Shown: one piece after another, positions 1,758 through 24,500 of the stretch
How the letters are laid out: every line of letters begins with the position of its first letter
How positions within the stretch are numbered: the stretch's first letter is position 1
Assembly: GCA_003856375.1 (NCBI GenBank)
Contig: CP034120.1
Location: 2,480,001-2,544,000 of the forward strand
DNA length: 64,000 nt
Direction: 5' to 3'
Origin: Glaciecola amylolytica
GTDB lineage: Bacteria; Bacteroidota; Bacteroidia; Flavobacteriales_D; Crocinitomicaceae
Made by a program: the position numbers and the translations under genes
Notes under the pieces: generated by a model
Told to the model about the DNA's origin: nothing
The model's database searches: none
The model's input: only the letters and a program-made list of their open reading frames with translations

Positions 1758-1758
1758 G

Positions 1759-4387: not shown

Positions 4388-4392
4388 GATTT

Positions 4393-4676: not shown

Positions 4677-4704
4677 CTGATTTCACAATATAGAAGTGAT
4701 TATA

Positions 4705-5786: not shown

Positions 5787-5796
5787 AGTTGTAATT

Positions 5797-6090
5797 CTAT
5801 TTTAGAGGTGGCGTATTTACTGGAGCTGGAAATGGGTTTGAATAATATTCGAGTGTGTTGTAGAATACTCTCATATTTGGAGCGGCGTGATCTGCATACC
5901 ACCATCTACCATTACCATCTAAGAAATCAAAATTTGTATATGTTACACCTGTTACCTCATCACGGGGTCTTCTAGTGTTAAAATTATAACTAGACATGTC
6001 TACCATCCCTAAATCATTAGGTAAGAAACCATCTGCATTTGGAGAATAAAATCTCATTGAGAACATCTCATTTTTTGATTCTAGTAACAT
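5797..6090 (-). CDS. Small hypothetical protein after the RHS cassette
   Basis: This 97-residue frame begins at an ATG 28 nt after the upstream lipoprotein gene and ends 10 nt before the next gene. It has no signal peptide, unlike its neighbours. The composition is rich in Asn, Phe, Tyr and Pro (for example FYSPNADGFLPNDLG and GNGRWWYADHAAPNMRV), which looks more like the C-terminal end of a larger surface or toxin protein than a free-standing enzyme. It may be an orphan C-terminal fragment left by cassette replacement. No family recognised. Confidence 0.5.
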   Translation of the reverse strand: MLLESKNEMFSMRFYSPNADGFLPNDLGMVDMSSYNFNTRRPRDEVTGVTYTNFDFLDGNGRWWYADHAAPNMRVFYNTLEYYSNPFPAPVNTPPLK

Positions 6091-6118
6091 TTTGATACAC
6101 TACTCCCCCCTTAAATCC

Positions 6119-6754
6119 TTAATGATCAAATCTCAGCGTTCCAAAAATATACCGTCGTTTCTTTTTTCCTTTTATATCTTTTTCACTTTCATCAACGAGA
6201 ATAAATCTTTTCTCATTTCTTCCACTTTTGGTATTAAGAACCGGAAAAGTTGCTACATCACTTTCAAAATAGACTGTATCCGGAGATCCATTAATTGAAA
6301 AATCAGGTCGAATATCCCCATACAAAATAAATGGATGTCCATTCTTGTATTGAGACCCTTGAAAATGAATATCGGCAAAAAGATGGCTCGCATCATCTTT
6401 ATACAAAATAGCTTCATAGAAACACGAGTTTTCCATATCTAAATTCCCATCGTAATCCAATGCCACCCAATTATTCATGTATTGTTTTTTTGTAGATTCC
6501 TTTTCTTTCATAGAATATACTAACGTAAGTCGAAAAGTAGAATCTAACCTCACCCCTTGCTCAATCCCAGCACCATCTACAAAGTGAATATTTTTCAATT
6601 TCACACCTGATTTCTTTAGCTTGGAAATATCTATTTTGAGAATTCCTTTTTTATCATATTCTATAAAATCGTCTTTTTCAGATTTATTCTCACAGGAAGA
6701 ACAAACAAAAATGTAAACTGCCAAAAACGGCACAATTAATTTAAATCGTTTCAT
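6119..6754 (-). CDS. Lipoprotein directly after the giant RHS gene, candidate immunity protein
   Basis: This 211-residue protein has a signal peptide and lipobox VCSSC with Cys21 as the likely lipidated residue. The mature part has an acidic, Lys-rich N-terminal linker, then a beta-rich domain without a recognised family. It starts 1 nt after the end of the 4357-residue RHS gene, which implies tight co-transcription and translation. In polymorphic toxin loci the gene directly after the toxin C terminus usually encodes the cognate immunity protein, and a lipoprotein would suit protection in the periplasm. This is inference from position; nothing in the sequence proves it. Confidence 0.65.
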   Translation of the reverse strand: MKRFKLIVPFLAVYIFVCSSCENKSEKDDFIEYDKKGILKIDISKLKKSGVKLKNIHFVDGAGIEQGVRLDSTFRLTLVYSMKEKESTKKQYMNNWVALDYDGNLDMENSCFYEAILYKDDASHLFADIHFQGSQYKNGHPFILYGDIRPDFSINGSPDTVYFESDVATFPVLNTKSGRNEKRFILVDESEKDIKGKKKRRYIFGTLRFDH

Positions 6755-6755
6755 A

Positions 6756-9700
6756 TCAATATGTCTTTATTGTTTTCAATGTATCACCGGTCTTATTCAT
6801 TTTTCCAGCGCGTGATTTAGCATCCTCTCTTGAAATAGGAGAATAAATTGTCGATTTGCTTTTACCTTCCGTATCATTGTATTGAACCTCCTCTAGAATA
6901 ATAGTATCCTTTAATGGCTCTGGTTTTGGTCCGAAAATCGGGTCTCTTTCTAAGTAATCTTCTTCTTCTTCTATTCCTTTTAGCTTATCTAAAAGTTCTG
7001 CCCAACCCATTCCTTCGTAAACCCAATCCGAGCTTGGTTTTTTAAGCCCTTGACATGCAGCACTTGCATAAATTAATAAATCTTCGATACTCCTTGAAGC
7101 TACATTGTATCTAGCTTTCTGTTTTGTTGGATCTGCTCCGCCGTCTTTTGAAGTCAGATTAATTCCGCCTGGTTGTGTATGCCCATAATCCGGTGGAACA
7201 GCTCTTGTAACCGCATCACCATCGATCATATCACCAACCTTCACTTTAATCATACGGAAGTCAAGCATACCTACATCAGCTGATGCACGCTTAAATTTTG
7301 TCAATGTATAATAAGTTATTTCAGTAGTTGTTTTCCCATCTGCACCAGTTGTAATTGTTATAACAGTTCTAAAATCATAAAAATTCCTATACTCAGTTCC
7401 ATCTTTATGTTTTTGTTTATTTCCAGCTCTGACTTTGTCAGAAATAGCTTCGGATGAGACTACTTTAGAAGTAACATTGCCTTTTGAATCTTTATATATA
7501 ACTGTTAAAAATTCATATTCACCATCAGGATCGTTAAAGATAATTGGACTGTTCAAAAATGCTTTATAGGGACTAAAAGAGGGTTGTTTCGAACTTTGCG
7601 GATCAATAGTCAACCATCTACCTAATCTTGGATCCAACATCCTAGCTCCAAAATCATAGCTATTCCCTTCCCCTTTAAGCTCATTGTCTTTTTCCATTCC
7701 ATTAAAACCATATCTCGATTTCTCAGCACCAGTCAAAGTCAAATTTCTACCTTCCAAAGTAACACCGAACGGAGAGTAATCAGTAGATTGGCGGATATCT
7801 GCTTTGAAGAAAACATATGGTTCCGATTCATAAGTCAACTTGATGTTATCCAGGCGCATTGAATCACAACTATAATTGGTAAACCAAACCCCACCAAAAG
7901 TTCCTGTCATCGGCACATTCGCATAATTCATAAAGTATGTATAGCTTCCCGGGGTATAAATTTCAGGATTACTACCTCCATACATTCCATCTACAAATAA
8001 GTTTATATAACCCGAAATGGAAGTTACATCAAAGGTTAAGGTATAATAAATATCCGGATCTTCCAGGAAATTCACAGCTTTGAATAGAGCATCATTCGTA
8101 CTCATGTCCATCTTTAATTTCAGCTCTCCGTTATCAGTTTCCAACGAATAACCTGGTGATGGTAAACCACCAGCAAGATCATATGGAAATCCCCAACCCA
8201 ACACATCTCCAGGTGTATCAAATTGGTCATCAAAGACGGTAACAGTATGTGACGCTTCATTATCAACCGGCATCAACTTATCACTAACCACACTCAACAC
8301 GTTCCCCAAATGATTACTCAGCTCGTAGGTTCTTTCTCCGATTCGGTGATTCACACGTTCCATAGAGTAGCTGTTGTTTTGCGAACCCAGCATCGGAACA
8401 GCCTGGTTATGCATTCCCAGACGGGAACTTCCGTAGATATGCTTCTCCACCTGTTCAAAAGAAATATTTTCTTCTTCTGAATTGATAAAATGTTCATACA
8501 CACTTATGGTATTTCCCTGAGCGTCCAGAATATAATATGTTGATTTTTCAAGTACCAAGTTTGACGCATACTCATGTTTAGCCACCCGATGCCCCATAGC
8601 ATCATAGTCGAAAGCTAACGATTTTTTCGCAGATCCGCTTGGACGTAAAATATTTTTCACTTTTCCATCTACCCGCCAGGTAATTGAACTGATTTCTTCC
8701 TGTTTGTCTTTCACCAATCTTCCTTCGGCATCATACACATAATTATTCCCTATTGCAATCGTATCCTGTGCAGAGTAAAAGAGCCCCATATCATCGATAT
8801 CATCCGGGAAAGCTCCGTTTCCGATCGTTTCATTGACACTGTACAAACGGTTTCGGGTACGTTTTCCGGAAACATCGTGGTAATTGTATGTCAGGTTATC
8901 AATGGTTGTATTTGCATGATTCTTTCTGACCTGAGTTTCAATGTTTCCGTTTGCATCATACGTAAATGCATTGTAGTACATTCCTGTACCACCACTTCCC
9001 CAGGTATTGGTTTCCTGATCCAGATTATTGAAACTGTTTGCTACCCGTAAACGGTTCAACTGATCGTATTTGTAGGCATTCCCAAGCGGCAATACTTCCC
9101 GGGTATTCGGATTGGTGATGGTGGTCACCATGCGTCCGATATTTCCGTTATACAAATCAGAACTATTCGCTGTCAGATCACTGCTGCCCTGAGCTGCTAC
9201 GAAACCATTGTTTCCTCCGACAATTGGCGTATAATCTCCTTCAAAATAATGCAAACTGTAACCGAAGACATCACGGGCTACCATTTTGTTATCACTTACA
9301 CCGTTTCCATCACGCCCCGGATCTTTGTCCTGATTCAGTCCGTTACTGTTCACACCTTTGATCCAGCCCTGAAGCGTATAGACATAGTCAATTCCCTGCA
9401 CTTCCTGATCTCCCAAAACAGTTCGTGCCAACGGCCCATGCTGATAATACGAATAGCTTGCCTCCTGATCCCACAGCGGATTGATCTCCGGTTCGTTCTG
9501 CATACTTGCAATGGAAGAATTTTCATCCACCAACGGTGTTTCTTTCGTGGTATAAACATCCGTAATACGGTTATCAGCATCGTAATTGTAAGCATGATGC
9601 CATTGATCTGCTTTTCCGGTTTGATAATCTACCCGATGTACATTTCCGGAGATTAAATCATAGGTGTAATCCATTCGTTTGAAACGATGCGTCTCCATTC

Positions 9701-12700
9701 CTGAAGTACTCCCTAGTATCCGGTTGTCCTGCAGAATCGTTTTTACATTTCCGTGCACATCATATTCATAATGTGTTGCGTGTTGATAAGTGTTACTAAA
9801 CACATTATATACCGGTGAATAAGTAACATGTACGATTCGTTTGCGCTGTGTGGAAGCCGTTAATGTCATCGGCAATGTCAGCCCGATAAGACTATCTGTT
9901 TTATCATAATAACTACGGGTTATTTCTGCACGCGTCATACCCGGGTTTTTGTTTAACCATGTAACAAATTTCGTATCATCTATTACTGACGGAACAGCTA
10001 ACCCTCCCACGTTTGTTCCGAATACGGATACAAATTGAGGATCCGGATACGTGTTTTCCAACTTTTCTCCCGCTTCGAATACCCGACCTAATTCGTCATA
10101 CAAGGTGTAGGAGAATTTTTTCACCAGTAACTGGCGTGAATTCTGACTTGCGACAATACGTCCCAGACGGTCATAATAGAAACGCGCGGTGAACATCCCG
10201 CCTTCGTGTCTTACTGCACGAACCATGGCTTTTTTAGTGGTTACGAAACCTGGCAAGTTATAACTCCCTCCATAAACACCCGTTGTACGTGAATTGAAAG
10301 AAATTGCAATGATGTCGTAAGAATCATCTGAACCTATTTCCGGGTCAATAATAATTTTCTGCACAGATGTCAAACCTCCGCTTAAGATATCATGTGTTAC
10401 ATTATCATTACTGACAGAAGTTAAATTGTACCATTGAGCAGCATCACCAACAGCATAGCCAACGATGTTGTCGTGGAAATAAATATCTCTTAATTCCGCA
10501 GGAACAGAAATCAGGTTATATGAAGTGTTTGTTCCTTTATTGTAATAATCAATTTTCCCCCACTTATTAGCGTAAGCCACACTTTGATTTTCAAAGACAT
10601 GAATTGCACGGATTGTATCAGTGGAAACACCAACAGCGGAGGGAGTAATGCTCAAAGCATATGAATTTCCACCCGGAGTAAGAGTTAATCCTTTCACAGA
10701 CTTATTATAACTGACATATCCTGTTAAAAACCCTGATCTGAACTGGATATCATTCAGATTTCCTGTGAATGAAGTTCCGGTAAACACTCCTCCGCTCACA
10801 GTTGCCATATAGTCAAGTCCTCCGACCAATGCAAAATGTGTATTAGCTGTCCCTATTTTAGTCCAGACTTTTCTTAGATCATGAATGTTTCCGCTATTCA
10901 AAACCAACGAATCCTTCGGAAGCTGTATTTTCCAGGTCAAACCACCATCTATGGTGGAGCGAACCAGGAAGTGATCTCCGACAAGTGTTCCGAATTGCCC
11001 GTCTTCAAAATGCACATCCCGGTATCTCGGTGAGAAAACACGCGTCTGAGGGCTTCCGGCATGTCCATTATATCGAGCCATAATGGATTGTTCTCCTACA
11101 ACCATCCAACGATCAGCGTTACCCGGAATCAAGCAGACACTTATCAGATTTTTGTTCGTCGTAACAGCAGCAGGAATAAACAGATTAGTCATAATTCCGG
11201 CAACGGAATAAGCTTTACCTCCGTCTCCCGCTAAAAAGACATTTTGGTTATTCACTGCAATATCACGGAAAGTTGTTCCGTTTGCATGGTCTGTAACCGT
11301 TAATCCGCTTGTGGTGTACAAAGCTGTTTCCGCCCAGGTTGATGAATGGAATTGAGAAAAGTATCCGTTGCTTCCTGCTGCCAGGAAGTAAGTAACCGAA
11401 GAATTTACAAATTCATTGGCTGCGTATAAATCACTTAATGTATGAAGTGGTTTCACCCGAGTTATCGATGTTGTGGCAGAAATACCTCTTGAGATCAATA
11501 AGCCGTTTTCACCGGTAATTAACAAACTGGAAGATAATAATCGAATATTGTTCAAAGAAGGTAAACGATGATCCTGACGCGCTGTGAAACTGATCGATTG
11601 TCCATCCGGTGTGTTAGGAACCATAGAAATAGAACCGGAGGTAAAAATCCCGCCATTCGTTCCTGCTACAGTAACCTGATTTCCATGAACTGCTAATTTT
11701 GTGATGACAGAAGTTCCGAGAGTTAAAACAGTTGCGAAACTATTCAATGCTCCGGGAGCAGCAGTTTTTCCATAAATCTTATTATTACTGCTATTGTATC
11801 CTAAAGCACATTCCCCGGCTGAAAGCGTTATTTTATCGAGCCAAACCAATGAAGTAGCACCTGATAATGGCGTAAATGCAGAATAGATTCCTGCAATCGC
11901 TCCACTGCCCGTTTCAACTACTGCTCCATTCGTCAATAAAACATCAACGGAAACTCCTGCTCCGTTTTTCAAAACAAGTATTTGTTTCGGAGTGGATGAA
12001 ACAGAGCCCGCATCAATAATCTCCGTGAAATTGATTGTTGTACCTGAAGTATTGTATGTATTTGAGCGATACAATTTGTTTGCTGCATCAATACCGAAAA
12101 TGGTCGTATAGGAACCATCCTGGTAAGCATACACCAATTTCATATCAAGAGCCTGCGCAGCTACCGGAGTTTGATCCAATTCCGTTATGACTCCGCTGGA
12201 AGCCATAAAAATCGTTTTGGAGTAAGCCTTTCCATTCTCATAACCTTGAATAAGAACATCCATATTTGCTGTTCCTGAACGCTTAATCAATGCCAGATTA
12301 GCTTGTACAAAATCCTTGCTCAAAGACAGCCAGTTTATTCCGCCGTCAAGAGTTTTTCGGATTACCTTTTGTCCGTTCTCTTCTATGCGTGCAATCCCTG
12401 TCTGAGCGTTCAACATGTGAATCTGATCGATGGCACCAACAGTTCCCGAAACTTTCATTGTCTGTAAGAAGTCTGAACTTCCTGTTCCTGAAAGCAAGGA
12501 GATATTTCCGTCTATTCCTGCAGTGATTCCTTTAGATCCATCGTAGAATGAAAGGGCATTCAGGTCTGCTGCAAGTGTCTTTTCAAGGGTGTAATGTGCC
12601 GAACCGTCATTCAGCAATATTGCATCGAAATCAGTAGTTCCATCATTTACAGATGCGATATAGATAATTCCGTTGGATGTCGAATAATTACTTTGAAGAC

Positions 12701-15700
12701 TGAAATCTTTGAATTCATTTACTGTATAGGAAGTATTACCCGGAGCACTTGCATGAGGAGTCAAAACCCCCACAGCATCACAGCTGTAAATAGTTCCTTT
12801 TTTTGTCATTGCAAAAGCCTTCGTCGAACTCACTTCCAACGATACAAAATCTTCCTGAATATTGGAGGAGTAAGTATCAACCAAATCCCAGCTGGCACCA
12901 CCGTCCTTGCTTAACAACAAAACTCCGGATGTTCCGACAGCAAAACCGGCACCACCACCAGTAAAACGTACACGTTTCAAATCACTTGCAATGGTATTCT
13001 CTACACGTGTCCAGTTCTGGCCACCATTGGTTGTTTTGAACAAATAACCACGCGTCCCCATCGGTGCAGTCGAATTTTTTATATAGCCGGTCAAATATCC
13101 CTGATTGGAATTTACCATCTGAATTGCTGTAGTAGCTAACTGCTTTGGTAGTCCATTTGGCAAAGTTGATTCAAAGACCTGCATCTCATCCTGATCCGGC
13201 ATATTCTGGGCCACCAGCTGATTCAGCGAGTTATACAAATAAGTAGTCTGCAGACGATGACTGGTCATAATCTGATGTGTATTGTTGGCGCGATCTTGCA
13301 GAATAGCCTTATAAACTGTTGTATCCGATACGTTTACAAACTCTACTCCCTCGGGAGGTACTGTTTTCACCAAATTCCCGGCCTGATCGTAATAATACAA
13401 TGTAAAATGATGTTCAATTTCATTGTATGTCATGGTCATATGCTCCACTGCACCCAAACAATGCTGAATGTACCGCTGACTGATATCCGTCATCAGATTC
13501 TGATTCTGTTCCTGATAAGTGATATAAGCATTCCCTTCTGTAGTAGATTCATAGAATTCGGTACATGGATCGTTGAACTCGGTAATAAATGGTTCTTCCA
13601 CCTGCATATTCAAAGAATCATTCGGACAAGGAATGGTTTGACCTCCCTGGCAAAAAGTCAGGATATTCGGCATCAGGTCAAAATCTTTCAATCCGGAACT
13701 CACCAGATTCAGTTCTGAGCAGTAATCATCAACGCAGTTACAAAGATCATTGGCGTAAAATGTCTGTTCGGAAATGACATATCCTATCAAATCTTCACTT
13801 TCATTTGCCATTGCAGTTGAATTGTATAGAGCCACACAGTTCAGGTATTGCTGATAGATATCCTTACATTGAATATCAAGATTTGGTAATTCTATTCCAC
13901 AATACTCGGAAAGAGTCATCGGCATAGGTAAATCAGCGGTGTCCGGTGCATTTACGTAATTGGATAAACTATAAGGTTTAATACATCCACAAAGACCTGC
14001 TTCATATACCTCTGTGGTGGAAATAAATTCATACGCCAATGTAACATTATGTGCAATAGCCCAAGGACTAGCGTTGAACTCATCAATTTTAGGAAGATAT
14101 TCTTCATAAAATCTTCTGGAACATTCAACAGTATCTGCAGTATAAGAAGGACAATTATAAGGCATCACCGGAAGAGCAAGATTGCATGAAGGATCTGTCA
14201 GCAAAGCATTCAGATAATGATTTAAAGTATCTTGACCACACTGAGTCTCACACAAATTCAAATTCAGGAATTGGTAGTACCCCACTAACTGATTCGCCCC
14301 AAAAGCCTCCGAAACACAGGAAGGATTCGTATCTAAATAATCCAAATAAGCTGTTACGTAGGTCTGATACTTCAAAAAGCAATCAGTAGGATAGATTTGT
14401 GCTGCCCACGTGTATGGAAACTCCAAAACCGTTTGAGTAACACCCGAATTAGTGATATGCCCAAGCAGATAAGTAATGTAATTGGAACAATCCTGTCCGT
14501 AAACAGTGGTAGTGAATACAGCTAATGAAACAGGTGTCAAATGATCGTAAGTGATTCCGTCACGACTTGTGTTGTAATGGTTTATCGCACTCAAATAACG
14601 AGAGTAAGAAAGTGCTATGGAATTAAATCCTCCATAGTAGGTATAAAAGTGAGCCGGGTTCTGAGCCAGTCCATAATCATCGATTCCATCCACAAAACTT
14701 GTCAAATATTGATAGTAATCAGATACGGAGTGTCCGGATATCTGGGTGAAATAGTCATAATGCGAAAGTGGATGAACAAAATTCGGATCTGAAATTGTTA
14801 ATCCAAAAGTGGTATTAAAGTTATTTACCTGGGTTTGGTAATAAGCATATCCGCTTAAGCTGTTATTAACTGTCAAAACATACGTATTGATATAAACCGA
14901 ATCAATCGAATCCAACTGAGAAGCTGTATAAGGAATGGTTATTTCACCGGTACACGAAATACATTCTTTCAATCGGATACAAGATTCTCCTTTTAATACA
15001 ACTGTGTGTAAAGAACCATTGATCGAAACGGATGTTGTGAGATTGAATCCATAATAAGATCCAAAATTATTGGTTGGTTCGCTTACATGAATTTCTCCTA
15101 CGGCTACAATACTGTCGAATGAGAAATTCAAGCCCGGAATACTGTCATATTTCAGTGTCAGATCACAGTCTGTCGGAAAATTGAAAGTCAACACTTTCTT
15201 TCCTCCTCCCAATGAGCTGACAGTCCCAATTGCTGTTTCCGTCAGTGCGTCGATCTGTGTTTCAAGACTTGATGTCAATGAAGCAGATTCATACAAGTCA
15301 AACGGTGCGTTCTGGTTCACCAGCACATCGCTCAGTACTCCTTTCAAATCGTCCAGATTCTGATATGGTTCTCCGGTACATAACAGTGCTGTTGGTAAGC
15401 CGCAACTTCCCATTTCAACAGCTTGCATTCCTCCTGACGTAACACGTACCGCATCACAACTAATTGTCACCAGATAGTTTCCGTAGGCATCATGACACAC
15501 CAAATCAAAGGTATTATTTGGTCCGACGATCAATTCTTCAACGCTTTCGATCAGGTTCATATTGGAAACGGTGAAAGTAGATGGTGAGAAAGAATTGATT
15601 CCCAATCTCAGATAATCTGAATTGGCTCCGTTTGTGATCTTAAATGCAGGAATAAGCGGATCAAAAATCCAGGATAAATTTCCAGGAGAGTTCAAACTGA

Positions 15701-18700
15701 CCGCATTCTTCACCGGATTGGTTAAAAAAGAACTAAAAGCAGTGATTGAAGTTAAGTTGACACTTGTTGTACTCGTTAATAATTCGGTGGCTGTAACTGC
15801 CTGAAACAACTGCTGCATATCTCTTCCCAGATCATTCTTTTCACAGACATCTTCAAATTGGCAATTTCCGATCGGAAGAGTTGTGCTACCTGTAACGGGA
15901 ACAAAATAAATCTCAGTGCCCAACTGCACTTTCGCAACTACAGTAAACTCATACAGTCCACCACTCGTTTCGGTAAAATATAAATTGGAAAAGCCTGTCA
16001 CCTGCGACCAGGAATATCCTAATGTGTCTAAAGAATCCTTCGACAGCTGAAGTGTTGCGAATGCCCCTACTCCTGTTTTGTTCCAAAGTACTTCCAAAAT
16101 ATTTGGATTGATCGTAGTTTGTGACCAAACAATGTTCTGATTCGGTGTTGATTCATCAAAATTATTCAGTGAAAGGAGTAAACCCGGGAATGAACCCAAA
16201 CTATTCAGAGAAAATGAAATATCATCCAATTGTGCTGATTGTGCGGTCTCATTCAACACCGATTGTAAAGAAGCAGCATTCGGGCATTGTCCCGTAACCA
16301 GGTATAACTGATAAGCCACATTCTGAGGAGATTGATTCATTAAATCGGCCGGGAACCCAAAGCGAACTTGTTTATTCTGGTAATATGGCCGTCTGGATCC
16401 GCTACATGGCTGTTCTGGATTGAAATACTGTCCGTAAACAGTAAATATCGGTCCGGGAGCGAAAGTCGCATTCAAAAAATCATTATCAAAGGAATTGAAA
16501 TCAGGGTTGCCGATACAAGCGTTATATCCAAGATAATCAGGATCATTAATAGTCAGATCTGTAAGAAGATCCTGAAACATTTTTTGCTTTGTGGAGAAAT
16601 ACAAACTTCTGAAAGCCATCCATGCTTCGTCTCGTTTCACTTCATTTTCAGTCGGACTCAGACCAACGTCGTTCCCCCATAACGCACACGCAGCAGAAGG
16701 ATAGGCTCCCAATTGCAGATTGGAACAACGGGTTGTTATTCCCGCAAACTCCATCATTGAATAATCAACTCCATTAATCGTTATGTAGTTTGCTACTTTA
16801 TTTTCCAGATGATTTGTACCATCATAATATGCTGCGGGATCCCAAACGAGCTGTGTCGTATCGGTCATAAATGCTCTGATCCGATTGTTTACTGTTTCGG
16901 ATAGATAAGTAGACTTAATAAACCCTGCGGCAACTGCATCATCCCAGGTATTTACTTCCATCATTGCATTGTCGAATGATTCTGAGGTAAAACGATCTCC
17001 CGGATTCACTTTTTCCGTCTTTTTACGGTAATATTTCAAAATCGGATATTCCGGATGGTAATACACCAATGAGTTTGCCCAGTAGGGATTCGCTCCATAA
17101 TAATTAATGAAATCAGTTAGATTCAATAAATATTGAGGATATGTATAATATTCATTCGTAACAGGGTCTAAAAAGATCTTTGTGTCTAATACTGCTCCTG
17201 CATCTAACTCAGGATCTGAAGCTGTAACGACATCACTTCCATTTAAAGTTACGTTTTGAAGATAAATTCTTGAAATTGTAGCTCCATCAGATTCATAATA
17301 ACGCTCCAGAATAACCGATTCGATATCATACTTAGGGTGCTTCCAGCTAGAGTTTGGTGATTTAGGCAGTAAATTGGAGGTATTCAAAACTGAAAGCGGG
17401 TGCATGGATGCCTGTGTTCCATTCGTATTCATGGTATATTCCCCGTACTGACCTCCCGGCATCATATCGCCTTTTAAGATCTCCCGCATCGATTCGTAAT
17501 AAGAAATCGGGGTACATGGACCATTACAAGCTACCACTGCCATCTGATAATCTGATTCGGTTCCTCCGGAAGACAAATAGTCAACCAGTGTACCTAAATT
17601 TTCCAGACATTCCTGACAACTAAAGTCGTCATCACATTCATTGTCTGTCAAGATCTGTTGTTCTGCCAATAATTCATCATAACCGGGCTTGCACTTGTTG
17701 ATACTGTCATTGACATACATTGCAACATAAGCTTCAATCGCTTCTTCGTTTACAGTTAGAATCTTGGAAATCTGATAAGAACCCACAGGAAGTGAATCAA
17801 TCACAAACAAAGTATCAAATGCCAGATTTGAGCAGTCAGTTTTAAAGTGAATCTGGTTTAAGGTATCTTTTTCAAAATGCCCGGTCAATTTATTAGCCAA
17901 CCGGCTCGGGCTAACCAGTTTTCCGCAATTATCCCGAACTTCAATCTTTAGATCATAAATACAGTTAAAGCAAAAACTGGAGTCTAAACAAGTATCTCTA
18001 AAAGGTTTTACAAAAATATCGTAGTCGATCTGAAGGTTTGTTTTGGATGTAAGTAATATTGTTTGATTGAAAACCTTTGATTTGGAATCTATTCCAAGGA
18101 CATTGGAACTACTGTTCCCTGCCAGATCTGAACCAAACAAATCAACCGTCAGAGGGCCTGCATTTCCGGCTGATTCCAATGATAGTAAATTATCCGGAGC
18201 CTTACCTGCCAATGAGGTTGCAACCACTCTTCCTTCCTGATCCAGATAAGAAACACTAACTTGCCCATTCGGGTCAATTACCATATTCTTCTGGTAATGT
18301 GCCACGTTACCAACTTCAGAACCGAACAAACGATCTAACTGAATCTGAAACGGATGGCCGTAGAAATACTTTGTTTCATGACCGCTTCCCAATTGAAAAT
18401 CAGGTCCCACTCCTCCTTGCCGGCTGATTCTTCCGGTATTATCGGGAGTGTATTCAACCTGACTGAAGGGGAAATTCTGCGCATCAGGTAAATATCCCTG
18501 AGCACCGGCTTTATCAGGATTTGCACCCGAATAATAATTGGATGCACCCGAACTGGTATGCATTGGTCTTAAAATAGTCGAACAGGAATCTCCAACAGAA
18601 GAAGTATCAAAATCCAATTTAGTATATGCATCCGTTCCATTCTTCCGATTGAATTTCTCATAATACTTCAGGCTGTTTTGTGCATCTTCTGCAACACAGC

Positions 18701-19829
18701 TTGTTGGAGCAACAGGTACTGGCAATACCTGGATTGCAGGCCGCCCCTGATGATCATAAATGGTTTCACCAACGATGGTCGTTTTATCTGAATTGATTTT
18801 TGTGACCATCTGACGATTTCTTAATGAACCGTCAAAAAACGAAACAACTTCTTTTTTCTTTCCTTCTTCAGCATAAGTCGAACTGTACTGCCAGTTTTTT
18901 AAAGCATCAAAAGGAATTGTCTGCCGATAATAATCACACGAAGAAACTGAAACCAATCCGTCCGAAGTGGTCCATGGTGTAAAAATAAACCTGCTTACAT
19001 CAGCTGTCGACCTTCCTACAGCCCGCACCCGATAACAGATATATCCTTTATCAAAAATAAGGGAGAGATGATAGTTTGTGAATGAGGTACTGATTCGTGT
19101 AGAATTCAATTTGAAATTGACAAACAAATCACCGATGACCTTATCATAATCATTAATATGAACCCATTCAACCTGATATTCCTCAGCACCTTCAACAGGG
19201 TTCCAGGAAATAACAAATTCATCAGGTACATCATCACAATCAAGATCCAGGGGATCATTTTCTTCTGAACTGTTTATAGTGATATTCGTGGATGACTGAG
19301 CTGTAAAGTCATAAATCCGGTCAACATAGATATCTCCCTGCACATACAAGTTCTCAATCAGATAATCCTGAGAAGTTCCGTTCATTTTTACACTAACGAG
19401 TTTAACATCAAACTTTTCCACGTTATTGAAAGTGTAAGATTGTTTGTCCACAAACGATAAACTGTCTTCAGGATAGTTGGAAATCTCCAGAGTGATCGTA
19501 TCATTTACTCCTGAAGCGGAAAGGGTTGCATACTTTGTAAGGACAATTTTAACTTCTGCCCTATATTGCCCCATATATAATGGAAAATGATGATCCACTC
19601 CCAAGGAAACGATTCCTTTTTTTGAGCGGTCGATACTTGTTCCTGTCCAAACCGGTGCAATAGCAGTTGTAAACTTTCCTGAAATATCATTCACAAGCGG
19701 TGTGCTTGAAAAATCATGCGGCGTTCTCAAGATCCCCCTGTTATAAGGAAGAATACCTGCAACTACTGCTGAAGTAATAAAGGCGAATAGAAAAAGTAAT
19801 AGTGCTGATCTTAATCTTAGTACGGTCAT
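6756..19829 (-). CDS. Giant secreted RHS/YD-repeat protein with inserted beta-propeller and variable C terminus
   Basis: This 4357-residue protein begins with a signal peptide (residues 1-24). About 195-290 is an FN3-like domain (VPDEFVISWNPVEGAEEYQ). About 310-370 resembles the DUF6443-type opening of Bacteroidota RHS proteins. A long Cys-rich region follows to about 2130. YD-type repeats start at about 2145 (YYDQAGNLVKTVPPEG) and are interrupted at about 2235-3195 by a domain with BNR/Ycf48-like blades (TTNGGQNWTRV, SKDGGASWDLV, STIDGGLTWKI). YD repeats resume with RFYYDRLGRIVASQN and continue to the RHS core (NGMEKDNE, LDPRLGRWLTIDP, about 4035-4100). The last 257 residues are unlike the core and carry no motif I recognise; they occupy the position of a toxin domain. 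The lipoprotein gene follows after 1 nt. Confidence 0.9.
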   Translation of the reverse strand: MTVLRLRSALLLFLFAFITSAVVAGILPYNRGILRTPHDFSSTPLVNDISGKFTTAIAPVWTGTSIDRSKKGIVSLGVDHHFPLYMGQYRAEVKIVLTKYATLSASGVNDTITLEISNYPEDSLSFVDKQSYTFNNVEKFDVKLVSVKMNGTSQDYLIENLYVQGDIYVDRIYDFTAQSSTNITINSSEENDPLDLDCDDVPDEFVISWNPVEGAEEYQVEWVHINDYDKVIGDLFVNFKLNSTRISTSFTNYHLSLIFDKGYICYRVRAVGRSTADVSRFIFTPWTTSDGLVSVSSCDYYRQTIPFDALKNWQYSSTYAEEGKKKEVVSFFDGSLRNRQMVTKINSDKTTIVGETIYDHQGRPAIQVLPVPVAPTSCVAEDAQNSLKYYEKFNRKNGTDAYTKLDFDTSSVGDSCSTILRPMHTSSGASNYYSGANPDKAGAQGYLPDAQNFPFSQVEYTPDNTGRISRQGGVGPDFQLGSGHETKYFYGHPFQIQLDRLFGSEVGNVAHYQKNMVIDPNGQVSVSYLDQEGRVVATSLAGKAPDNLLSLESAGNAGPLTVDLFGSDLAGNSSSNVLGIDSKSKVFNQTILLTSKTNLQIDYDIFVKPFRDTCLDSSFCFNCIYDLKIEVRDNCGKLVSPSRLANKLTGHFEKDTLNQIHFKTDCSNLAFDTLFVIDSLPVGSYQISKILTVNEEAIEAYVAMYVNDSINKCKPGYDELLAEQQILTDNECDDDFSCQECLENLGTLVDYLSSGGTESDYQMAVVACNGPCTPISYYESMREILKGDMMPGGQYGEYTMNTNGTQASMHPLSVLNTSNLLPKSPNSSWKHPKYDIESVILERYYESDGATISRIYLQNVTLNGSDVVTASDPELDAGAVLDTKIFLDPVTNEYYTYPQYLLNLTDFINYYGANPYWANSLVYYHPEYPILKYYRKKTEKVNPGDRFTSESFDNAMMEVNTWDDAVAAGFIKSTYLSETVNNRIRAFMTDTTQLVWDPAAYYDGTNHLENKVANYITINGVDYSMMEFAGITTRCSNLQLGAYPSAACALWGNDVGLSPTENEVKRDEAWMAFRSLYFSTKQKMFQDLLTDLTINDPDYLGYNACIGNPDFNSFDNDFLNATFAPGPIFTVYGQYFNPEQPCSGSRRPYYQNKQVRFGFPADLMNQSPQNVAYQLYLVTGQCPNAASLQSVLNETAQSAQLDDISFSLNSLGSFPGLLLSLNNFDESTPNQNIVWSQTTINPNILEVLWNKTGVGAFATLQLSKDSLDTLGYSWSQVTGFSNLYFTETSGGLYEFTVVAKVQLGTEIYFVPVTGSTTLPIGNCQFEDVCEKNDLGRDMQQLFQAVTATELLTSTTSVNLTSITAFSSFLTNPVKNAVSLNSPGNLSWIFDPLIPAFKITNGANSDYLRLGINSFSPSTFTVSNMNLIESVEELIVGPNNTFDLVCHDAYGNYLVTISCDAVRVTSGGMQAVEMGSCGLPTALLCTGEPYQNLDDLKGVLSDVLVNQNAPFDLYESASLTSSLETQIDALTETAIGTVSSLGGGKKVLTFNFPTDCDLTLKYDSIPGLNFSFDSIVAVGEIHVSEPTNNFGSYYGFNLTTSVSINGSLHTVVLKGESCIRLKECISCTGEITIPYTASQLDSIDSVYINTYVLTVNNSLSGYAYYQTQVNNFNTTFGLTISDPNFVHPLSHYDYFTQISGHSVSDYYQYLTSFVDGIDDYGLAQNPAHFYTYYGGFNSIALSYSRYLSAINHYNTSRDGITYDHLTPVSLAVFTTTVYGQDCSNYITYLLGHITNSGVTQTVLEFPYTWAAQIYPTDCFLKYQTYVTAYLDYLDTNPSCVSEAFGANQLVGYYQFLNLNLCETQCGQDTLNHYLNALLTDPSCNLALPVMPYNCPSYTADTVECSRRFYEEYLPKIDEFNASPWAIAHNVTLAYEFISTTEVYEAGLCGCIKPYSLSNYVNAPDTADLPMPMTLSEYCGIELPNLDIQCKDIYQQYLNCVALYNSTAMANESEDLIGYVISEQTFYANDLCNCVDDYCSELNLVSSGLKDFDLMPNILTFCQGGQTIPCPNDSLNMQVEEPFITEFNDPCTEFYESTTEGNAYITYQEQNQNLMTDISQRYIQHCLGAVEHMTMTYNEIEHHFTLYYYDQAGNLVKTVPPEGVEFVNVSDTTVYKAILQDRANNTHQIMTSHRLQTTYLYNSLNQLVAQNMPDQDEMQVFESTLPNGLPKQLATTAIQMVNSNQGYLTGYIKNSTAPMGTRGYLFKTTNGGQNWTRVENTIASDLKRVRFTGGGAGFAVGTSGVLLLSKDGGASWDLVDTYSSNIQEDFVSLEVSSTKAFAMTKKGTIYSCDAVGVLTPHASAPGNTSYTVNEFKDFSLQSNYSTSNGIIYIASVNDGTTDFDAILLNDGSAHYTLEKTLAADLNALSFYDGSKGITAGIDGNISLLSGTGSSDFLQTMKVSGTVGAIDQIHMLNAQTGIARIEENGQKVIRKTLDGGINWLSLSKDFVQANLALIKRSGTANMDVLIQGYENGKAYSKTIFMASSGVITELDQTPVAAQALDMKLVYAYQDGSYTTIFGIDAANKLYRSNTYNTSGTTINFTEIIDAGSVSSTPKQILVLKNGAGVSVDVLLTNGAVVETGSGAIAGIYSAFTPLSGATSLVWLDKITLSAGECALGYNSSNNKIYGKTAAPGALNSFATVLTLGTSVITKLAVHGNQVTVAGTNGGIFTSGSISMVPNTPDGQSISFTARQDHRLPSLNNIRLLSSSLLITGENGLLISRGISATTSITRVKPLHTLSDLYAANEFVNSSVTYFLAAGSNGYFSQFHSSTWAETALYTTSGLTVTDHANGTTFRDIAVNNQNVFLAGDGGKAYSVAGIMTNLFIPAAVTTNKNLISVCLIPGNADRWMVVGEQSIMARYNGHAGSPQTRVFSPRYRDVHFEDGQFGTLVGDHFLVRSTIDGGLTWKIQLPKDSLVLNSGNIHDLRKVWTKIGTANTHFALVGGLDYMATVSGGVFTGTSFTGNLNDIQFRSGFLTGYVSYNKSVKGLTLTPGGNSYALSITPSAVGVSTDTIRAIHVFENQSVAYANKWGKIDYYNKGTNTSYNLISVPAELRDIYFHDNIVGYAVGDAAQWYNLTSVSNDNVTHDILSGGLTSVQKIIIDPEIGSDDSYDIIAISFNSRTTGVYGGSYNLPGFVTTKKAMVRAVRHEGGMFTARFYYDRLGRIVASQNSRQLLVKKFSYTLYDELGRVFEAGEKLENTYPDPQFVSVFGTNVGGLAVPSVIDDTKFVTWLNKNPGMTRAEITRSYYDKTDSLIGLTLPMTLTASTQRKRIVHVTYSPVYNVFSNTYQHATHYEYDVHGNVKTILQDNRILGSTSGMETHRFKRMDYTYDLISGNVHRVDYQTGKADQWHHAYNYDADNRITDVYTTKETPLVDENSSIASMQNEPEINPLWDQEASYSYYQHGPLARTVLGDQEVQGIDYVYTLQGWIKGVNSNGLNQDKDPGRDGNGVSDNKMVARDVFGYSLHYFEGDYTPIVGGNNGFVAAQGSSDLTANSSDLYNGNIGRMVTTITNPNTREVLPLGNAYKYDQLNRLRVANSFNNLDQETNTWGSGGTGMYYNAFTYDANGNIETQVRKNHANTTIDNLTYNYHDVSGKRTRNRLYSVNETIGNGAFPDDIDDMGLFYSAQDTIAIGNNYVYDAEGRLVKDKQEEISSITWRVDGKVKNILRPSGSAKKSLAFDYDAMGHRVAKHEYASNLVLEKSTYYILDAQGNTISVYEHFINSEEENISFEQVEKHIYGSSRLGMHNQAVPMLGSQNNSYSMERVNHRIGERTYELSNHLGNVLSVVSDKLMPVDNEASHTVTVFDDQFDTPGDVLGWGFPYDLAGGLPSPGYSLETDNGELKLKMDMSTNDALFKAVNFLEDPDIYYTLTFDVTSISGYINLFVDGMYGGSNPEIYTPGSYTYFMNYANVPMTGTFGGVWFTNYSCDSMRLDNIKLTYESEPYVFFKADIRQSTDYSPFGVTLEGRNLTLTGAEKSRYGFNGMEKDNELKGEGNSYDFGARMLDPRLGRWLTIDPQSSKQPSFSPYKAFLNSPIIFNDPDGEYEFLTVIYKDSKGNVTSKVVSSEAISDKVRAGNKQKHKDGTEYRNFYDFRTVITITTGADGKTTTEITYYTLTKFKRASADVGMLDFRMIKVKVGDMIDGDAVTRAVPPDYGHTQPGGINLTSKDGGADPTKQKARYNVASRSIEDLLIYASAACQGLKKPSSDWVYEGMGWAELLDKLKGIEEEEDYLERDPIFGPKPEPLKDTIILEEVQYNDTEGKSKSTIYSPISREDAKSRAGKMNKTGDTLKTIKTY

Positions 19830-19833: not shown

Positions 19834-20586
19834 CTATTTTTTTGATTTTAGGCGTGCATCATGCAACTGATATGCTATCATGCCTGGTGCTAGTGTTATG
19901 TTATTCTGTTTGTCTTTTACCAAAATTTTTTCATCAGAAAAAGACACTTCATTTTTTTTTAACGGGGTGATCGGTTCATAAACAACCGTTATATAAGGAG
20001 ATTCGATCGTTTCATCGTCTTCACTCTCCATAAAATAATTTGCGGAGGGCAAAGTGATTACCAGTTTATACAAGACTTTTCGTTTGGTATCAATATAAAA
20101 CTCCATCGTTCCTTCATCTGAGATTTTCGGAATTGCCTTCAGAACAGTGTATCCTCCAAAGGATGTTTTTTCCAGATCATATCGATCAAGCATTTCCTGC
20201 GTCAGTTCGTTTGCCATGCTCATCGCTTTCATGGAAGGATCAATATCCGACACCTGAACAAAGTGTTGAGCAGTATCAATATAGATCGCATAATCTTTTG
20301 TTTGCAAAACAGTAATTCCGCCTGCCAGCATTTTATACACAAATCCGGATTCCTTATAGATAACACCATTAACGGACTCTACAGGCGTCGCTGACTTTAA
20401 ATCCTGAAAGGTCTCTTTCTTAAATTTCAAGACAATATTTTCCTGATTCATCTGATTTATCGCCTGTTGAATTTCCTGTTTAAATTCCGTTGAAGACAAT
20501 GTCTTTTTCGTTTGTCCGAAACAGTTTGAAAAAGCAGAAATTGCTACGACTAATATGAAAAAGTGTTTTTTCATCATTTTATTCAT
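19834..20586 (-). CDS. Exported hypothetical protein of the RHS operon
   Basis: This 250-residue protein has a signal peptide ending NCFGQ near residue 25. The mature part is a single beta-rich domain with paired motifs (GGITVLQTKDYAIYIDTA; MEFYIDTKRKVLYKLVITL) that faintly recall LolA-type lipid or lipoprotein carriers; this is not a firm assignment. The ATG at 20586 overlaps the previous stop codon by 8 nt; ATGs at 20577 and 20574 would give a cleaner MKKHFF start. It lies 4 nt before the giant RHS gene, so it is part of the same operon. It might help export or assembly of the RHS shell; that is inference. Confidence 0.7.
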   Translation of the reverse strand: MNKMMKKHFFILVVAISAFSNCFGQTKKTLSSTEFKQEIQQAINQMNQENIVLKFKKETFQDLKSATPVESVNGVIYKESGFVYKMLAGGITVLQTKDYAIYIDTAQHFVQVSDIDPSMKAMSMANELTQEMLDRYDLEKTSFGGYTVLKAIPKISDEGTMEFYIDTKRKVLYKLVITLPSANYFMESEDDETIESPYITVVYEPITPLKKNEVSFSDEKILVKDKQNNITLAPGMIAYQLHDARLKSKK

Positions 20587-21577
20587 TAATGGATGAGTTC
20601 TCGCGATTTTCCTGAATCGTCATGATTCCTTTTTCGGTTTCTTTCTTCACTCGAACAAGTTTTCCCTCCTCATCGTATTCATAAATTTTCGCATAATTCC
20701 TTTCATCTAATTCAGCCATCAAACGCAATGTAATCGGGTCATAAACATATGTAATCATGGATCCGTCATAGGGAAAAACCCGGATATCATCGAAATAGGA
20801 AGTTCCGGATGAAACAATGAGCTCCATTTTCATATTACCGACTGAATTGGTCTGAACAATTCCCTCAATGCGCTGCCAGCCATCTATAATTTGCCCTGAC
20901 GGACTAAACGTATAGACATTTGATCCGGAAGTAACCTTTAACTGTGAATGTGTATAATTAATGGCTCCGGAAGTACTTCCTGCCTGTTCCTTAACCCATG
21001 CTGAAACAACATACTTGTCATTTACCGGCTGGAATTTCGGTAAACAATTTTCACATTCAATCTCATTGAGACAGTTCTCGAAAACACTTAGAGTATTTAC
21101 GTTTGTAAACATTAGATATCCTTCACAAGCATTCGTTGTTACCTCTAAAACATATCTTTTTCCTCCTTCGAGAGTACTCAATACGCTGCGAACATTTGTG
21201 GAAACAGTTCCTTGTTCAATTGGAGCAATACTATTTCCCTCAATAACAGATGTATAGTTTTGATTGGAATCAAAGGGGCCAAACAAACGAAAACCGGATG
21301 AAACCGGAGTTGTCGCAGAAGAATTGGTAAACACCTGAAAATTGATCTGCACTGTTCCTCCTATTAGAAGAACCGTCTCATCCGGGTAAAACTCGTAATA
21401 CAATCTTGACTTTCCATTCACACACAAAAAACCCTTGTCCGAATCAAAAATTCCGGTTCCGGTATTAGTTCTCCCACATACTTTGTAAACCTGACTCGGA
21501 GAGTAATTCGTTAATGTATCCTGTCCAAATAAAGCACCGGATAATAAGCAGTAAATAATCAATCCAAAGACTTTCAT
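20579..21577 (-). CDS. Secreted linker protein ending in a YD/RHS repeat
   Basis: The start at 21577 gives 332 residues with a clean signal peptide (MKVFGLIIYCLLSGALFGQ); the longer frame from 21607 would overlap the upstream gene by 20 nt. The middle (about 190-280) is a jelly-roll-like segment with KYVVSAWVKEQAG and SGTSYFDDIRVFPYDGSM. The end carries a YD unit (TYVYDPITLRLMAELDE, then YAKIYEYDEEGKLVRVKKE). In many Bacteroidota RHS proteins this same order, ending the SpvB-like half, occurs inside one chain. Here it is a separate gene between the 1884- and 4357-residue shell proteins. Probable structural part of a split RHS shell. Confidence 0.8.
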   Translation of the reverse strand: MKVFGLIIYCLLSGALFGQDTLTNYSPSQVYKVCGRTNTGTGIFDSDKGFLCVNGKSRLYYEFYPDETVLLIGGTVQINFQVFTNSSATTPVSSGFRLFGPFDSNQNYTSVIEGNSIAPIEQGTVSTNVRSVLSTLEGGKRYVLEVTTNACEGYLMFTNVNTLSVFENCLNEIECENCLPKFQPVNDKYVVSAWVKEQAGSTSGAINYTHSQLKVTSGSNVYTFSPSGQIIDGWQRIEGIVQTNSVGNMKMELIVSSGTSYFDDIRVFPYDGSMITYVYDPITLRLMAELDERNYAKIYEYDEEGKLVRVKKETEKGIMTIQENRENSSINE

Positions 21578-21587
21578 ACCAATACTT

Positions 21588-24500
21588 TTAATAATTAATA
21601 ATTTCATGCTGATAAGAATTACCTCCGTTTGAAGTGATTTTTATACCCGTCTTACATCCTTTTGAATCTGTTATGGAGATATTCAGATACTCTCCTGCAT
21701 CATCCACAAAAAATGAAATGATATTTCCGGGTTCCATAATCGCATCTGCGGCTCCGTTCCCAACGAATTCATAAGTGAACTGATATGGCGCTTGTCCACC
21801 TGTGATCTCAACAGAATTTTGTTTTCCGGCAACAACCGTTAAGACAATATCACAAGTAGATTCATTCTGACAATCAGAGATCACATTCTCAAAAACCACC
21901 GGAGAACCGGCTTCTACTTTGATACTTTTTCGTCCTGTATGCACATGTGTAGTTTCAATAGCTGAATTAGGAATCACGGCAACTCCACCTGTACCAATCT
22001 TAGCTCTGCTGAAATATCCTTGTTCCAGACAATTTGTATTTCCTGCATCCTCAAATCCTCCGGATGCGATCTGCTGAGATTTCGCATTTGCAGCTACAGC
22101 AGTTGTCAGCGTATTGTTAAATTCAAACAAACTGGATGAATACCTTCCTAAAGCATCTCTTGTTTCCAATGTCATTCCATTCGGAGAGAACTCGGTAACT
22201 TCAGAGACAAAGGTCCAATTCTGACCATCTTTCTCCCATTTTCCCTGTCCTAACTTATAAAATGGGGAATAACTCGTAAATACTCCATCTTTTCGGATAT
22301 TGGTATTTGCATCGTAATCTGTTTGAGTTCTCCCACTCAAATACGTGTATGAGCGAACAGGTCTCCAGTTTCCTTTAATCCCTAAAACATATGGATTTCT
22401 TGATGAACTGGCGAAACACTCACAATACGTTTTCCAGACATCGTCAAATTCGACAGCTCCTGCGTTCAACACATTTGTAAACTGGTTGGTACCGATCCCC
22501 GTTAGCGGGTTGCTAATGGAAGTCATGCTGGCCATTGACGTATTTTGTTTATTCCGATGACCTGAACGGATCACTTTTATCACAGCATTCGCCCCTGAAA
22601 CAGGAAGCCCTTCCTTATCCAGAATTCTGATTCCGGAAGCATTCTTTTCAACAACCCATCCTTTTTTGGTAAATGAATCAGTGCGGACCATTACCTCATC
22701 TCCTTCTACAAAAAGATTGTACTGTGACGGAACGGAAGCGAAACCGTTAGAAGCAAGATTACTTGCTTTGTAGCTATACAGAATATTGGTGGATGCCTGA
22801 GAAAAAACATCGTATTTCCAATATGCAGGATAATTCAAGGCATAAACCTTATCATTGAAATTAGTAGTGGTTTGAGTAACCAGCACTTCTCCGGTTTTAG
22901 CATCGTAAGCCAGATTATTGGTTTCTACAATGCTTCCGTCCTGATTTGCAATTGTTTTTTCCAGAACGCCGAATTTTTGAACCGTTTTATTAAATGTTGC
23001 ACTTCGGAAGCGGTTTGTTGTACGGTCATATCCGGGATACAAGACTGGAATAAATGCCGTTACGAATCCAAACAACATCGTATTCGTATTGATTTTCAAT
23101 TTTCCTGTTTGCGAAACCGTCTCACTTTCACGGAAATCGGCAACAGCATCATACCTTACACCAATCGTCTTTTCATCGATACTTCCATCCTGATTGATCA
23201 CTTTCACATTATTCTTCAAACGGCTGTTCGCAACTCCATCCAAAAACAAATTCTCAGATTGGTAGACATACTCAACCGTTGAAAGCGGAGCCTGTTTGTT
23301 TTCTGCATAAACACTTTCTTTTTTAGGTTTACCATGCATATCATTGAGTTCTATCATGAACCCTTCGTTTGCGGTCAGGTACTGAAATTTAGGTAAAAGC
23401 GGAAGAAAGCTGTTTTTTGTCTTGGCATCTGCTCCGGTCGATTTTACAATTGTTGGGAAATCGCGGGCAGTATAGAATTCCTTAACGACTTTTCCGGTAG
23501 CTGTTTTGATTACATTTGCGTGTTTCAAATCGCGGATTTCTACTCTGGAATATCCTACGGAAGGTGAAGGAAACTGAGATTCCATAATCGGATCTTCAAT
23601 ATACATTCTATCATCAGTAGCCAGAAGTTTTTTATTGTTCACTTCATAGGCCGAATGCCAGGTATTTTCATCTCCTCCGAGCTGCGGCTCATAAGATGCT
23701 ACTCCCGATGAAGTTCCGTCTTCCAAAGTGTAGGTGAATTCCTGGCCGTATTCACTAGAAGTACTTCCATTCATTGCATCCCAATTATCTTTGATCCTGA
23801 TTTTTTTCACACGAACTCCACCTCCCAGTTTCCGACCAGAAGGATTATAAAGCCGAATCCATGACTTATTGATCACGATCTCTCGTCCTCTCTCCATGTC
23901 ATAGATGTACTTATTGGGTCCGCTGAATATTTCCTTAAAACTTGCAAAAGCGCCGATAGTCGCATTCGCAAAATCAGTCAATCCTTGTTCTGATTCGCCA
24001 ACATCTCCATCATTGTTAATGACATCTGTAATGGTTCTGGACAATTGCGTTCTTCCAAACAAAATGGCTTGTTTGGCTATCGGGCTGTATTCATCATTTC
24101 CTGAATCTTTTAATTTCTCACCTTTCAGCTTGATCATCCCGTAATAAACACCTCCTAAATTAACTTTTGCAAGTTCTGTTATCGTTCCATATCCCGAAAT
24201 GAATTCAGCTTGTTCTTTCAGATTCGAGCCACTCGGATTCATAATCATTAATGCCCTGAAGTACATCTGCATTCCTTTCACAGCATACTTTTCAATTTCA
24301 TCCGTCTGATTCTCCAACTTGAATAAAATTCCCATGTTCGGCCGATTGGGACTAGAGATACTTGTACTTAAAACACTTCCTCCGAAGCCGTCAGATACAT
24401 ATTCATTTTCGTCGCGATATACTCCTACAATCTTGAACATCTGAGAAGCTTTCTTATGCTGAACATAGGCGTAATCATCTGACTCATAGTCCACGTTGAT

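What the first reader, a model, noticed from the sequence alone, without database searches (positions are those of the whole stretch)
10230..13130. A beta-propeller of about 950 residues inserted inside the YD-repeat region
The chain runs TTYLYNSLNQLVAQNMPDQD, then leaves YD sequence for a long BNR/Ycf48-like stretch (TTNGGQNW, DGGASWDLV, DGGLTWKIQ), then returns with RFYYDRLGRIVASQN. In typical RHS proteins these two YD segments are adjacent. The propeller therefore interrupts the shell at one precise place and would protrude from it, perhaps as a receptor-binding head.
Basis: partly seen in the sequence, partly recalled or inferred. Interest (0 to 1): 0.75.

Follow-up and report, generated by a model that had tools for sequence, protein, structure and literature searches.

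The report
Propeller array inserted in giant RHS
A giant secreted, toxin-like RHS protein of a Fluviicola-like bacterium carries about 1,000 extra residues of repeated propeller blades in place of one short turn of its shell, probably an outward-facing recognition or capping head; similar add-ons are known in other RHS-type proteins, so this is a new variant rather than a new kind.

Summary
The gene is one open frame (6756-19829, minus strand, 4357 aa). Residues 2215-3214 (10188-13187) interrupt a YD hairpin between '...NSLNQLVAQNMPDQD' and 'ARFYYDRLGR...'. In 23 distinct insert-less relatives (20 places, plus three paralogues of the same genome) that spot holds a short turn, mostly PDGG, and the YD strands are adjacent; 22 insert-bearing proteins, the window's included, hold 949-1016 aa there. 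No third state was seen in 38 loci. The sequence says propeller: 12 of 12 inserts scanned match Pfam YCF48, and blade repeats of ~47 aa run nearly end to end (about 21 units), so two or three propellers rather than one; two low-confidence AlphaFold models agree with blades but do not settle the rings. The trait is clustered on the flank tree and its distances follow its flanks; it was found in 26 of 399 Flavobacteriales genomes, 23 of the window's family. The host protein looks like a polymorphic Rhs toxin: signal-peptide-like start, Rhs core, unrelated tips in close kin. A Tc-style gate is less likely: no TcA-domain match in the genome. Best reading: an exposed recognition head (inferred). 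Precedents: mosquito SGS1, TcB, lectins embedded in RHS repeats. New variant of a known kind.

The parts
6756..19829 (-). RHS/YD giant, 4357 aa, N-terminal hydrophobic signal-peptide-like stretch
   Evidence: signal peptide read by eye from the sequence
18594..18881 (-). DUF6443 (PF20041), residues 317-412
   Evidence: E=3.7e-10, over the curated cut-off
13188..13439 (-). YD segment before the insert, residues 2131-2214, ends ...YNSLNQLVAQNMPDQD
10188..13187 (-). Insert, residues 2215-3214 (1000 aa), propeller-blade array (about 21 blade units)
   Evidence: boundaries; fold
12774..13061 (-). Best Pfam YCF48 (PSII_BNR) match, residues 2257-2352
   Evidence: E=7.3e-10
9840..10187 (-). YD segment after the insert, residues 3215-3330, starts ARFYYDRLGRIVASQN
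7521..7778 (-). Rhs-associated core, residues 4018-4103, ends ...IIFNDPDG
   Evidence: TIGR03696 43.2 bits (cut-off 32.5)
6759..7520 (-). Variable C-terminal tail, residues 4104-4357 (candidate toxin domain; its last 250 residues match no Pfam family)
6119..6754 (-). Lipoprotein-like ORF next to the tail (candidate immunity gene, inferred from position only)
19834..20586 (-). LolA3-like protein (sub-cut-off match)
   Evidence: 53 bits against cut-off 83; tblastn match in 8 of 35 loci, 5 distinct places
20579..21607 (-). 342-aa partner with a C-terminal YD-like stretch; matches at insert-bearing and insert-less loci
   Evidence: tblastn match in 30 of 35 loci, some loci being copies of each other
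21588..27242 (-). 1884-aa secreted partner; matches at insert-bearing and insert-less loci
   Evidence: tblastn match in 22 of 35 loci, many of them cut short upstream

Best explanation
A secreted, polymorphic-toxin-like RHS protein in which a ~1000-residue YCF48-type propeller array (about 21 blades, most likely three seven-bladed propellers) stands in the turn between two neighbouring YD strands, where relatives have two or three residues. Because the site is the turn of a YD hairpin, the array can hang on the shell without breaking its strand order. Shown: the insertion, its site, the blade repeats, its clustered distribution, distances that follow the flanks, and the variable C-terminus. 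Inferred: that the array faces outward and acts as the recognition or adhesion head that brings the shell to its target (surface protein or glycan) before the C-terminal domain is released. About 0.9 for the architecture, about 0.45 for the targeting role.
For: Empty sites: 8 of 8 proteins, three of them paralogues in the same genome, and 23 of 23 insert-less loci. Same site in 12 of 12 insert-bearing proteins and 15 of 15 insert-bearing loci, the window included. Propeller: (six Ycf48/HCF136 sequences of solved structures, E 2.4e-13 to 2.8e-10). Insert and flank patristic distances correlate, 0.76 for the C-flank (0 of 500 permutations as high) and 0.88 for the N-flank (no permutation run), 22 proteins. 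Polymorphic tip: 16-29% identity in the tail in the 8 of 10 relatives with more than half of it aligned, against 43-76% in residues 301-1000 for the 10. Toxin-system domains in 2 of 13 insert-bearing tails scanned: PT-HINT and Toxin-JAB1. Precedents for recognition domains inside RHS/YD sequence: SGS1 (passages of PMC9935623); lectins embedded among RHS repeats (passages of PMC3482391).
Against: No model of good quality: mean pLDDT 52.5 (pTM 0.35) and 53.1 (pTM 0.57), so ring number, closeness of the two ends and orientation are unproved. The insert is not a hot spot of variation: 56-70% identity with the nearest relative, against 59-69% in residues 1001-2130. No ligand or binding residue was identified. 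The window protein's own tail matches no Pfam family, and Pfam's RHS_repeat reaches it only below its cut-off (18.2 against 22 bits).
Confidence: 0.5

Rival explanations
1. Cap or gate: the propellers close or extend an opening of the cocoon and control release of the C-terminal domain, as TcB's propeller does and as SGS1 propeller 2 may.
For: TcB's propeller is a gate that opens on binding TcA (passages of PMC8765631; of PMC6868009); SGS1 propeller 2, inserted in the YD sequence, extends the bottom of the shell (passages of PMC9935623).
Against: The partner of the Tc gate was not found: no TcA_TcB_BD match in the own genome, nor in 5 of the 7 insert-bearing genomes among the 40 searched; but it is present in 9 of the 40, among them insert-bearing G008 and G012. 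The insert-less paralogues do without the array.
Confidence: 0.27
2. Assembly platform: the propellers dock the other secreted products of the gene group (1884-aa and 342-aa partners, LolA-like protein) or the surface of the producing cell.
For: Matches to the 342-aa and 1884-aa partners in 30 and 22 of 35 loci (loci overlap and many are cut). That propellers often serve as docking surfaces is general knowledge.
Against: Insert-less loci match the same partners, in at least four of them (L038, L040, L042, L043) within one long upstream ORF, and have no insert. The LolA-like gene matched only at four same-genus loci (and their copies) and at L090/G350.
Confidence: 0.15
3. A neutral or structural spacer that happens to sit in a tolerated loop.
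For: Insertion in a turn costs little; no function is shown.
Against: Length is kept at 949-1016 aa in 22 proteins and 30 columns are invariant in 12 sequences from two families of the order, so it looks selected.
Confidence: 0.06
4. The stretch is continuing YD shell that has diverged.
For: Both are all-beta and repetitive.
Against: YCF48 profile matches in 12 of 12, adjacent YD strands in insert-less relatives, propeller-type proteins and no RHS shell among the top 50 structure matches listed for each model.
Confidence: 0.02

Closest known systems
SGS1, mosquito salivary gland surface protein (PDB 8FJP; PMC9935623, passages seen)
   Same: RHS/YD shell with domains formed by segments inserted in the YD sequence, one of them a propeller (residues 705-1216, nine blades, distorted) read as a putative receptor domain that also extends the chamber.
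   Different: Mosquito protein; about 510 aa and one propeller in that insert; whether the insertion site corresponds was not tested; SGS1 carries further inserted domains.
TcB propeller of Tc toxins (PMC8765631, PMC6868009, passages seen)
   Same: Propeller attached to an RHS cocoon.
   Different: Six-bladed, binds TcA and gates the cocoon; here about 21 YCF48-type blade units and no TcA_TcB_BD match in the genome.
Teneurins and bacterial teneurin-like proteins (PMC13018210: abstract, section 7 and passages seen)
   Same: YD shell plus a propeller (NHL), and a variable C-terminal domain in bacteria.
   Different: Their NHL propeller lies on the N-terminal side with the FN-plug, not inside a YD hairpin.
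Polymorphic Rhs toxins with lectin domains embedded among RHS repeats (PMC3482391, passages seen)
   Same: Recognition-type domain within the repeats, variable C-terminal toxin.
   Different: RicinB, discoidin and bulb lectins are named there, not a long YCF48-type array.
YCF48/HCF136 (PDB 2xbg, 5ojp, 5oj3)
   Same: Blade sequence; profile matches E 2.4e-13 to 2.8e-10.
   Different: Stand-alone photosystem II assembly factor; seven-bladed (recalled).

Membership tests
Polymorphic Rhs toxin | Rhs-associated core near the C-terminus | tested here: met
   TIGR03696 over its cut-off, residues 4018-4103; Pfam RHS_repeat only below its cut-off
Polymorphic Rhs toxin | C-terminal tip unrelated between close relatives | tested here: met
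   22% identity in the tail against 80% in the core with the nearest relative L024
Polymorphic Rhs toxin | Recognised toxin domain in the tip | tested here: inconclusive
   None for the window protein; of 20 tails scanned, 2 of 13 insert-bearing (PT-HINT, Toxin-JAB1) and 2 of 7 insert-less (PT-HINT, Tox-REase-5) match toxin-system families over the cut-off
Polymorphic Rhs toxin | Autocleavage at the core and a cognate immunity protein | not testable with these tools
   PIIFNDPDG fits the PxxxxDPxG motif quoted in PMC13018210; a small ORF, 6119-6754, lies next to the tip
YCF48-type beta-propeller | Blade sequence with DGG-x-W boxes matching the family profile | tested here: met
YCF48-type beta-propeller | Closed ring of seven blades | tested here: inconclusive
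   About 21 units traced; models of low confidence; YCF48 matches of the C-terminal third TM 0.41-0.43 by query and 0.46-0.52 by target, an eight-bladed design 0.50/0.59
Tc toxin B/C | Propeller that docks a TcA partner | tested here: not met
   No TcA_TcB_BD match in the own genome; not filed as a Tc toxin
Tc toxin B/C | Sequence relation to solved TcB/TcC | tested here: inconclusive
   Single-sequence phmmer of P0001 (E<=0.1) and P0002 (E<=1) against PDB lists none; a distant relation is not excluded
Teneurin-like protein | FN-plug and NHL propeller before the shell | tested here: inconclusive
   No NHL match among the Pfam families listed for P0001, which is an insensitive test here; the propeller array lies inside the YD sequence

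The most novel reading that the evidence does not exclude
A self-contained class of Rhs toxin whose shell carries, at one fixed YD turn, a three-propeller head doing the work of a separate targeting subunit, acquired once in Flavobacteriales and kept while the C-terminal warhead was exchanged again and again, with insert-less paralogues in the same genome as natural controls.
Probability: 0.3. Interest if true: 0.65.

Novelty: new variant of a known kind. Interest (0 to 1): 0.45.

Why it matters
RHS shells are known to gain functions through added domains, and clean before-and-after pairs make such additions testable. Here the same genome holds shells with and without a 1000-residue head at the same turn, and relatives keep the head while their tips change. 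That makes the question 'what does an inserted propeller array do for an RHS shell' directly testable, and it bears on how secreted RHS proteins without a TcA partner reach their targets.

Tried and rejected
The first genome-contig query failed by my own frame error. Alignment A1 of 12 inserts was too diverse for the pattern scan; as the message advised I used fewer sequences (A2, 4 rows), which gave 4 loci. Accession CP002542, tried from recall, is not held.

Considered and rejected: gene-fusion or assembly artefact (same site in 12 of 12 proteins, and a single open frame); chance YCF48 motifs; mobile cassette (no match in the plasmid or phage collections; insert and flank distances agree); a hot spot for many kinds of domain (only two states in 38 loci: the 28 loci newly fetched, which listed 64 places, and 10); stand-alone donors (each of the 22 full-length rows among the 30 lies in a frame of 1767 aa or more, the shortest two on contigs of 5 and 12 kb; the 5 matches outside the family cover only 137-270 of 994 model positions). 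A single origin is not proved: the flank tree needs 2 changes because one long-branch insert-less row (L042) falls among insert-bearing rows; holding the insert-bearing rows together is not rejected, p-AU 0.131.

Literature: searches 'YCF48'+'rearrangement hotspot', 'YCF48'+'RHS repeat' and 'Crocinitomicaceae'+'Rhs' each gave 0 papers. Only an open-access library was searched, so I do not claim that the insert is unpublished.

Full report
What is there. One open frame of 4357 aa (6756-19829, minus) encodes an RHS protein: a signal-peptide-like start (read by eye), DUF6443, an Rhs-associated core at residues 4018-4103 and a 254-residue tail. Pfam's own RHS_repeat reaches it only below its cut-off (18.2 against 22 bits). 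Between residues 2214 and 3215 it leaves YD sequence for 1000 residues (window 10188-13187).

The junction. I extracted 12 insert-bearing proteins (the window's included) and 8 insert-less ones. The 12 carry 949-1016 aa between a '..YNSL[NG]QL..Q..PD..' end and a '..[FY][FY]YD.LGR..[ST].N' start; the 8 have only 2-3 residues between the aligned flanks, mostly the GGx or similar of a PDGG-type turn. Three of the 8 (L038, L039, L040) are paralogues in the same genome. A search with only the N-side segment found 64 places in 38 of 299 genomes; I read the 28 loci newly fetched there and 10, 38 in all: 15 continue into the insert (one is the window), 23 (20 distinct places, none of them in the own genome) run straight into the next YD-like strand, 20 of the 23 loci with PDGG; there was no third state. 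Together with the three own paralogues that makes 23 distinct insert-less places. The insert therefore stands in the turn of one YD hairpin.

The fold. Pfam YCF48 matches the full protein at E=7.3e-10 and 12 of 12 inserts at E<=0.01 (BNR in 5, Sortilin-Vps10 in 2). The insert profile finds six Ycf48/HCF136 sequences of solved structures at 2.4e-13 to 2.8e-10. The profile of 22 inserts aligned to itself shows strong off-diagonal matches (best E=7.7e-26) with commonest spacings of 44-51 residues; five column shuffles give E>=0.72. Tracing them gives marks about every 47 residues, roughly 21 units; this is my estimate, as some marks are faint. A blade HMM trained on the same family, the window included, finds 13 hits in the insert, several of them weak, one weak hit elsewhere in the protein and none in one shuffled insert. 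AlphaFold was weak: 1071 aa, pLDDT 52.5, pTM 0.35; C-terminal third, 385 aa, pLDDT 53.1, pTM 0.57. Foldseek with the first gives in its top 50 proteins such as megalin, DDB1 and SORCS2, which I know as propeller proteins, but with TM of only 0.10-0.20 by query length; with the second, YCF48 on top (E=1.3e-7, TM 0.43/0.51) and a designed eight-bladed protein (0.50/0.59). So: propeller blades through nearly the whole insert, three seven-bladed rings if evenly divided; two rings of ten are not excluded.

Distribution and descent. A profile search found the insert in 26 of 399 Flavobacteriales genomes (23 in the window's family, the own genome included, and 3 in other families; 22 of 30 rows full-length, 8 partial). 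In 395 genomes across the phylum two of the window's family have it (one the own genome); five others show partial YCF48-type similarity. Named carriers: an uncultured Fluviicola MAG (two genes), Fluviicola chungangensis MAH-3 and a groundwater Flavobacteriia MAG; NCBI places Fluviicola in Crocinitomicaceae. That the window is Fluviicola-like is inferred: contigs of the same lengths belong to genomes that genome-search runs same genus. A tree of the C-side segment (28 insert-bearing rows, partial ones included, and 13 insert-less; duplicates L072 and L077 dropped, L069 has no C-side segment) needs two changes, against 11.3 on average in shuffles; holding the insert-bearing rows together is not rejected (p-AU 0.131). 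Distances in the insert follow those in the flanks (r=0.76 C-side, 0 of 500 permutations as high; r=0.88 N-side, no permutation run; 22 proteins). One gain with mostly vertical descent is the simplest reading; the root is not known.

The host protein. Against the nearest relative (L024) the core is 80% identical but the tail 22%. Over 10 relatives, 8 have more than half of the tail aligned and are 16-29% identical there (one of these, L030, is cut by its contig end); L029 has none and L031 2% aligned. GC is 0.38-0.44 along most of the gene, 0.33-0.38 in the windows over its 3' end and 0.29-0.34 beyond. Of 20 tails scanned (13 insert-bearing, the window's among them, and 7 insert-less), four match toxin-system families over the cut-off: PT-HINT twice, Toxin-JAB1, Tox-REase-5; the window's own matches none. 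The core ends PIIFNDPDG, which fits the PxxxxDPxG motif described for bacterial teneurin-like proteins (PMC13018210, section 7). It has the build of a polymorphic Rhs toxin; toxicity is not shown.

Mechanism. Inserted domains on RHS/YD shells are known: SGS1's propeller 2 and lectin-like domains are formed by segments inserted in the YD sequence and are put forward as receptor domains, propeller 2 also extending the chamber (PMC9935623, passages); lectins embedded among RHS repeats were proposed to improve contact with targets (PMC3482391, passages); TcB's propeller docks on TcA and gates the cocoon (PMC8765631 and PMC6868009, passages). A TcA-type gate is the less likely choice here: there is no TcA_TcB_BD match in the own genome or in 5 of the 7 insert-bearing genomes among the 40 searched; it is present in 9 of the 40, including insert-bearing G008 and G012. 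I therefore favour an outward recognition head (0.45-0.5), with a cap or gate as main rival (0.27). Against over-reading: the insert is steady in length and not unusually variable (56-70% with the nearest relative, against 59-69% in residues 1001-2130), so it does not look like a rapidly diversifying specificity region.

Neighbours. The upstream 342-aa and 1884-aa proteins have matches in 30 and 22 of 35 loci, insert-bearing and insert-less alike (loci overlap and many are cut); in at least four insert-less loci both match within one long ORF just before the RHS gene. They seem to belong to the general RHS gene group, not to the insert.

Noticed in passing
window 2485-6754: AT-rich stretch after the RHS gene (GC 0.29-0.34) with several small secreted or lipoprotein-like ORFs, two of them look-alike neighbours (4705-5028 and 5460-5786); looks like a candidate immunity array.
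   Followed up: partly
L084 (G191) and L085 (G215): Several partial matches to the RHS C-terminal part lie side by side near an RHS frame that begins inside the propeller insert; no match to the N-terminal part in the stretches fetched. Resembles orphan C-terminal cassettes.
   Followed up: partly
L083 (G037), 761-5851: A 1697-aa RHS frame begins in the last third of the propeller insert, on a stretch without N; no match to the N-terminal part in the 19 kb fetched.
   Followed up: partly
window 21588-27242: The N-terminal stretch of the 1884-aa partner (..IAYSSGVSMDQEASWVGLGWNLNTGAITR..) reminds me, from recall, of SpvB/TcB-type starts; no SpvB match was listed by Pfam.
   Followed up: partly
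window 46907-53149: 2080-aa protein of repeated domains whose C-terminal end resembles a type IX secretion sorting domain (recalled motif, not tested).
   Followed up: no
window 19834-20586: LolA3-like protein (below cut-off) between the RHS gene and its 342-aa partner; tblastn matches at four same-genus loci and at L090/G350 only, among the loci searched.
   Followed up: partly
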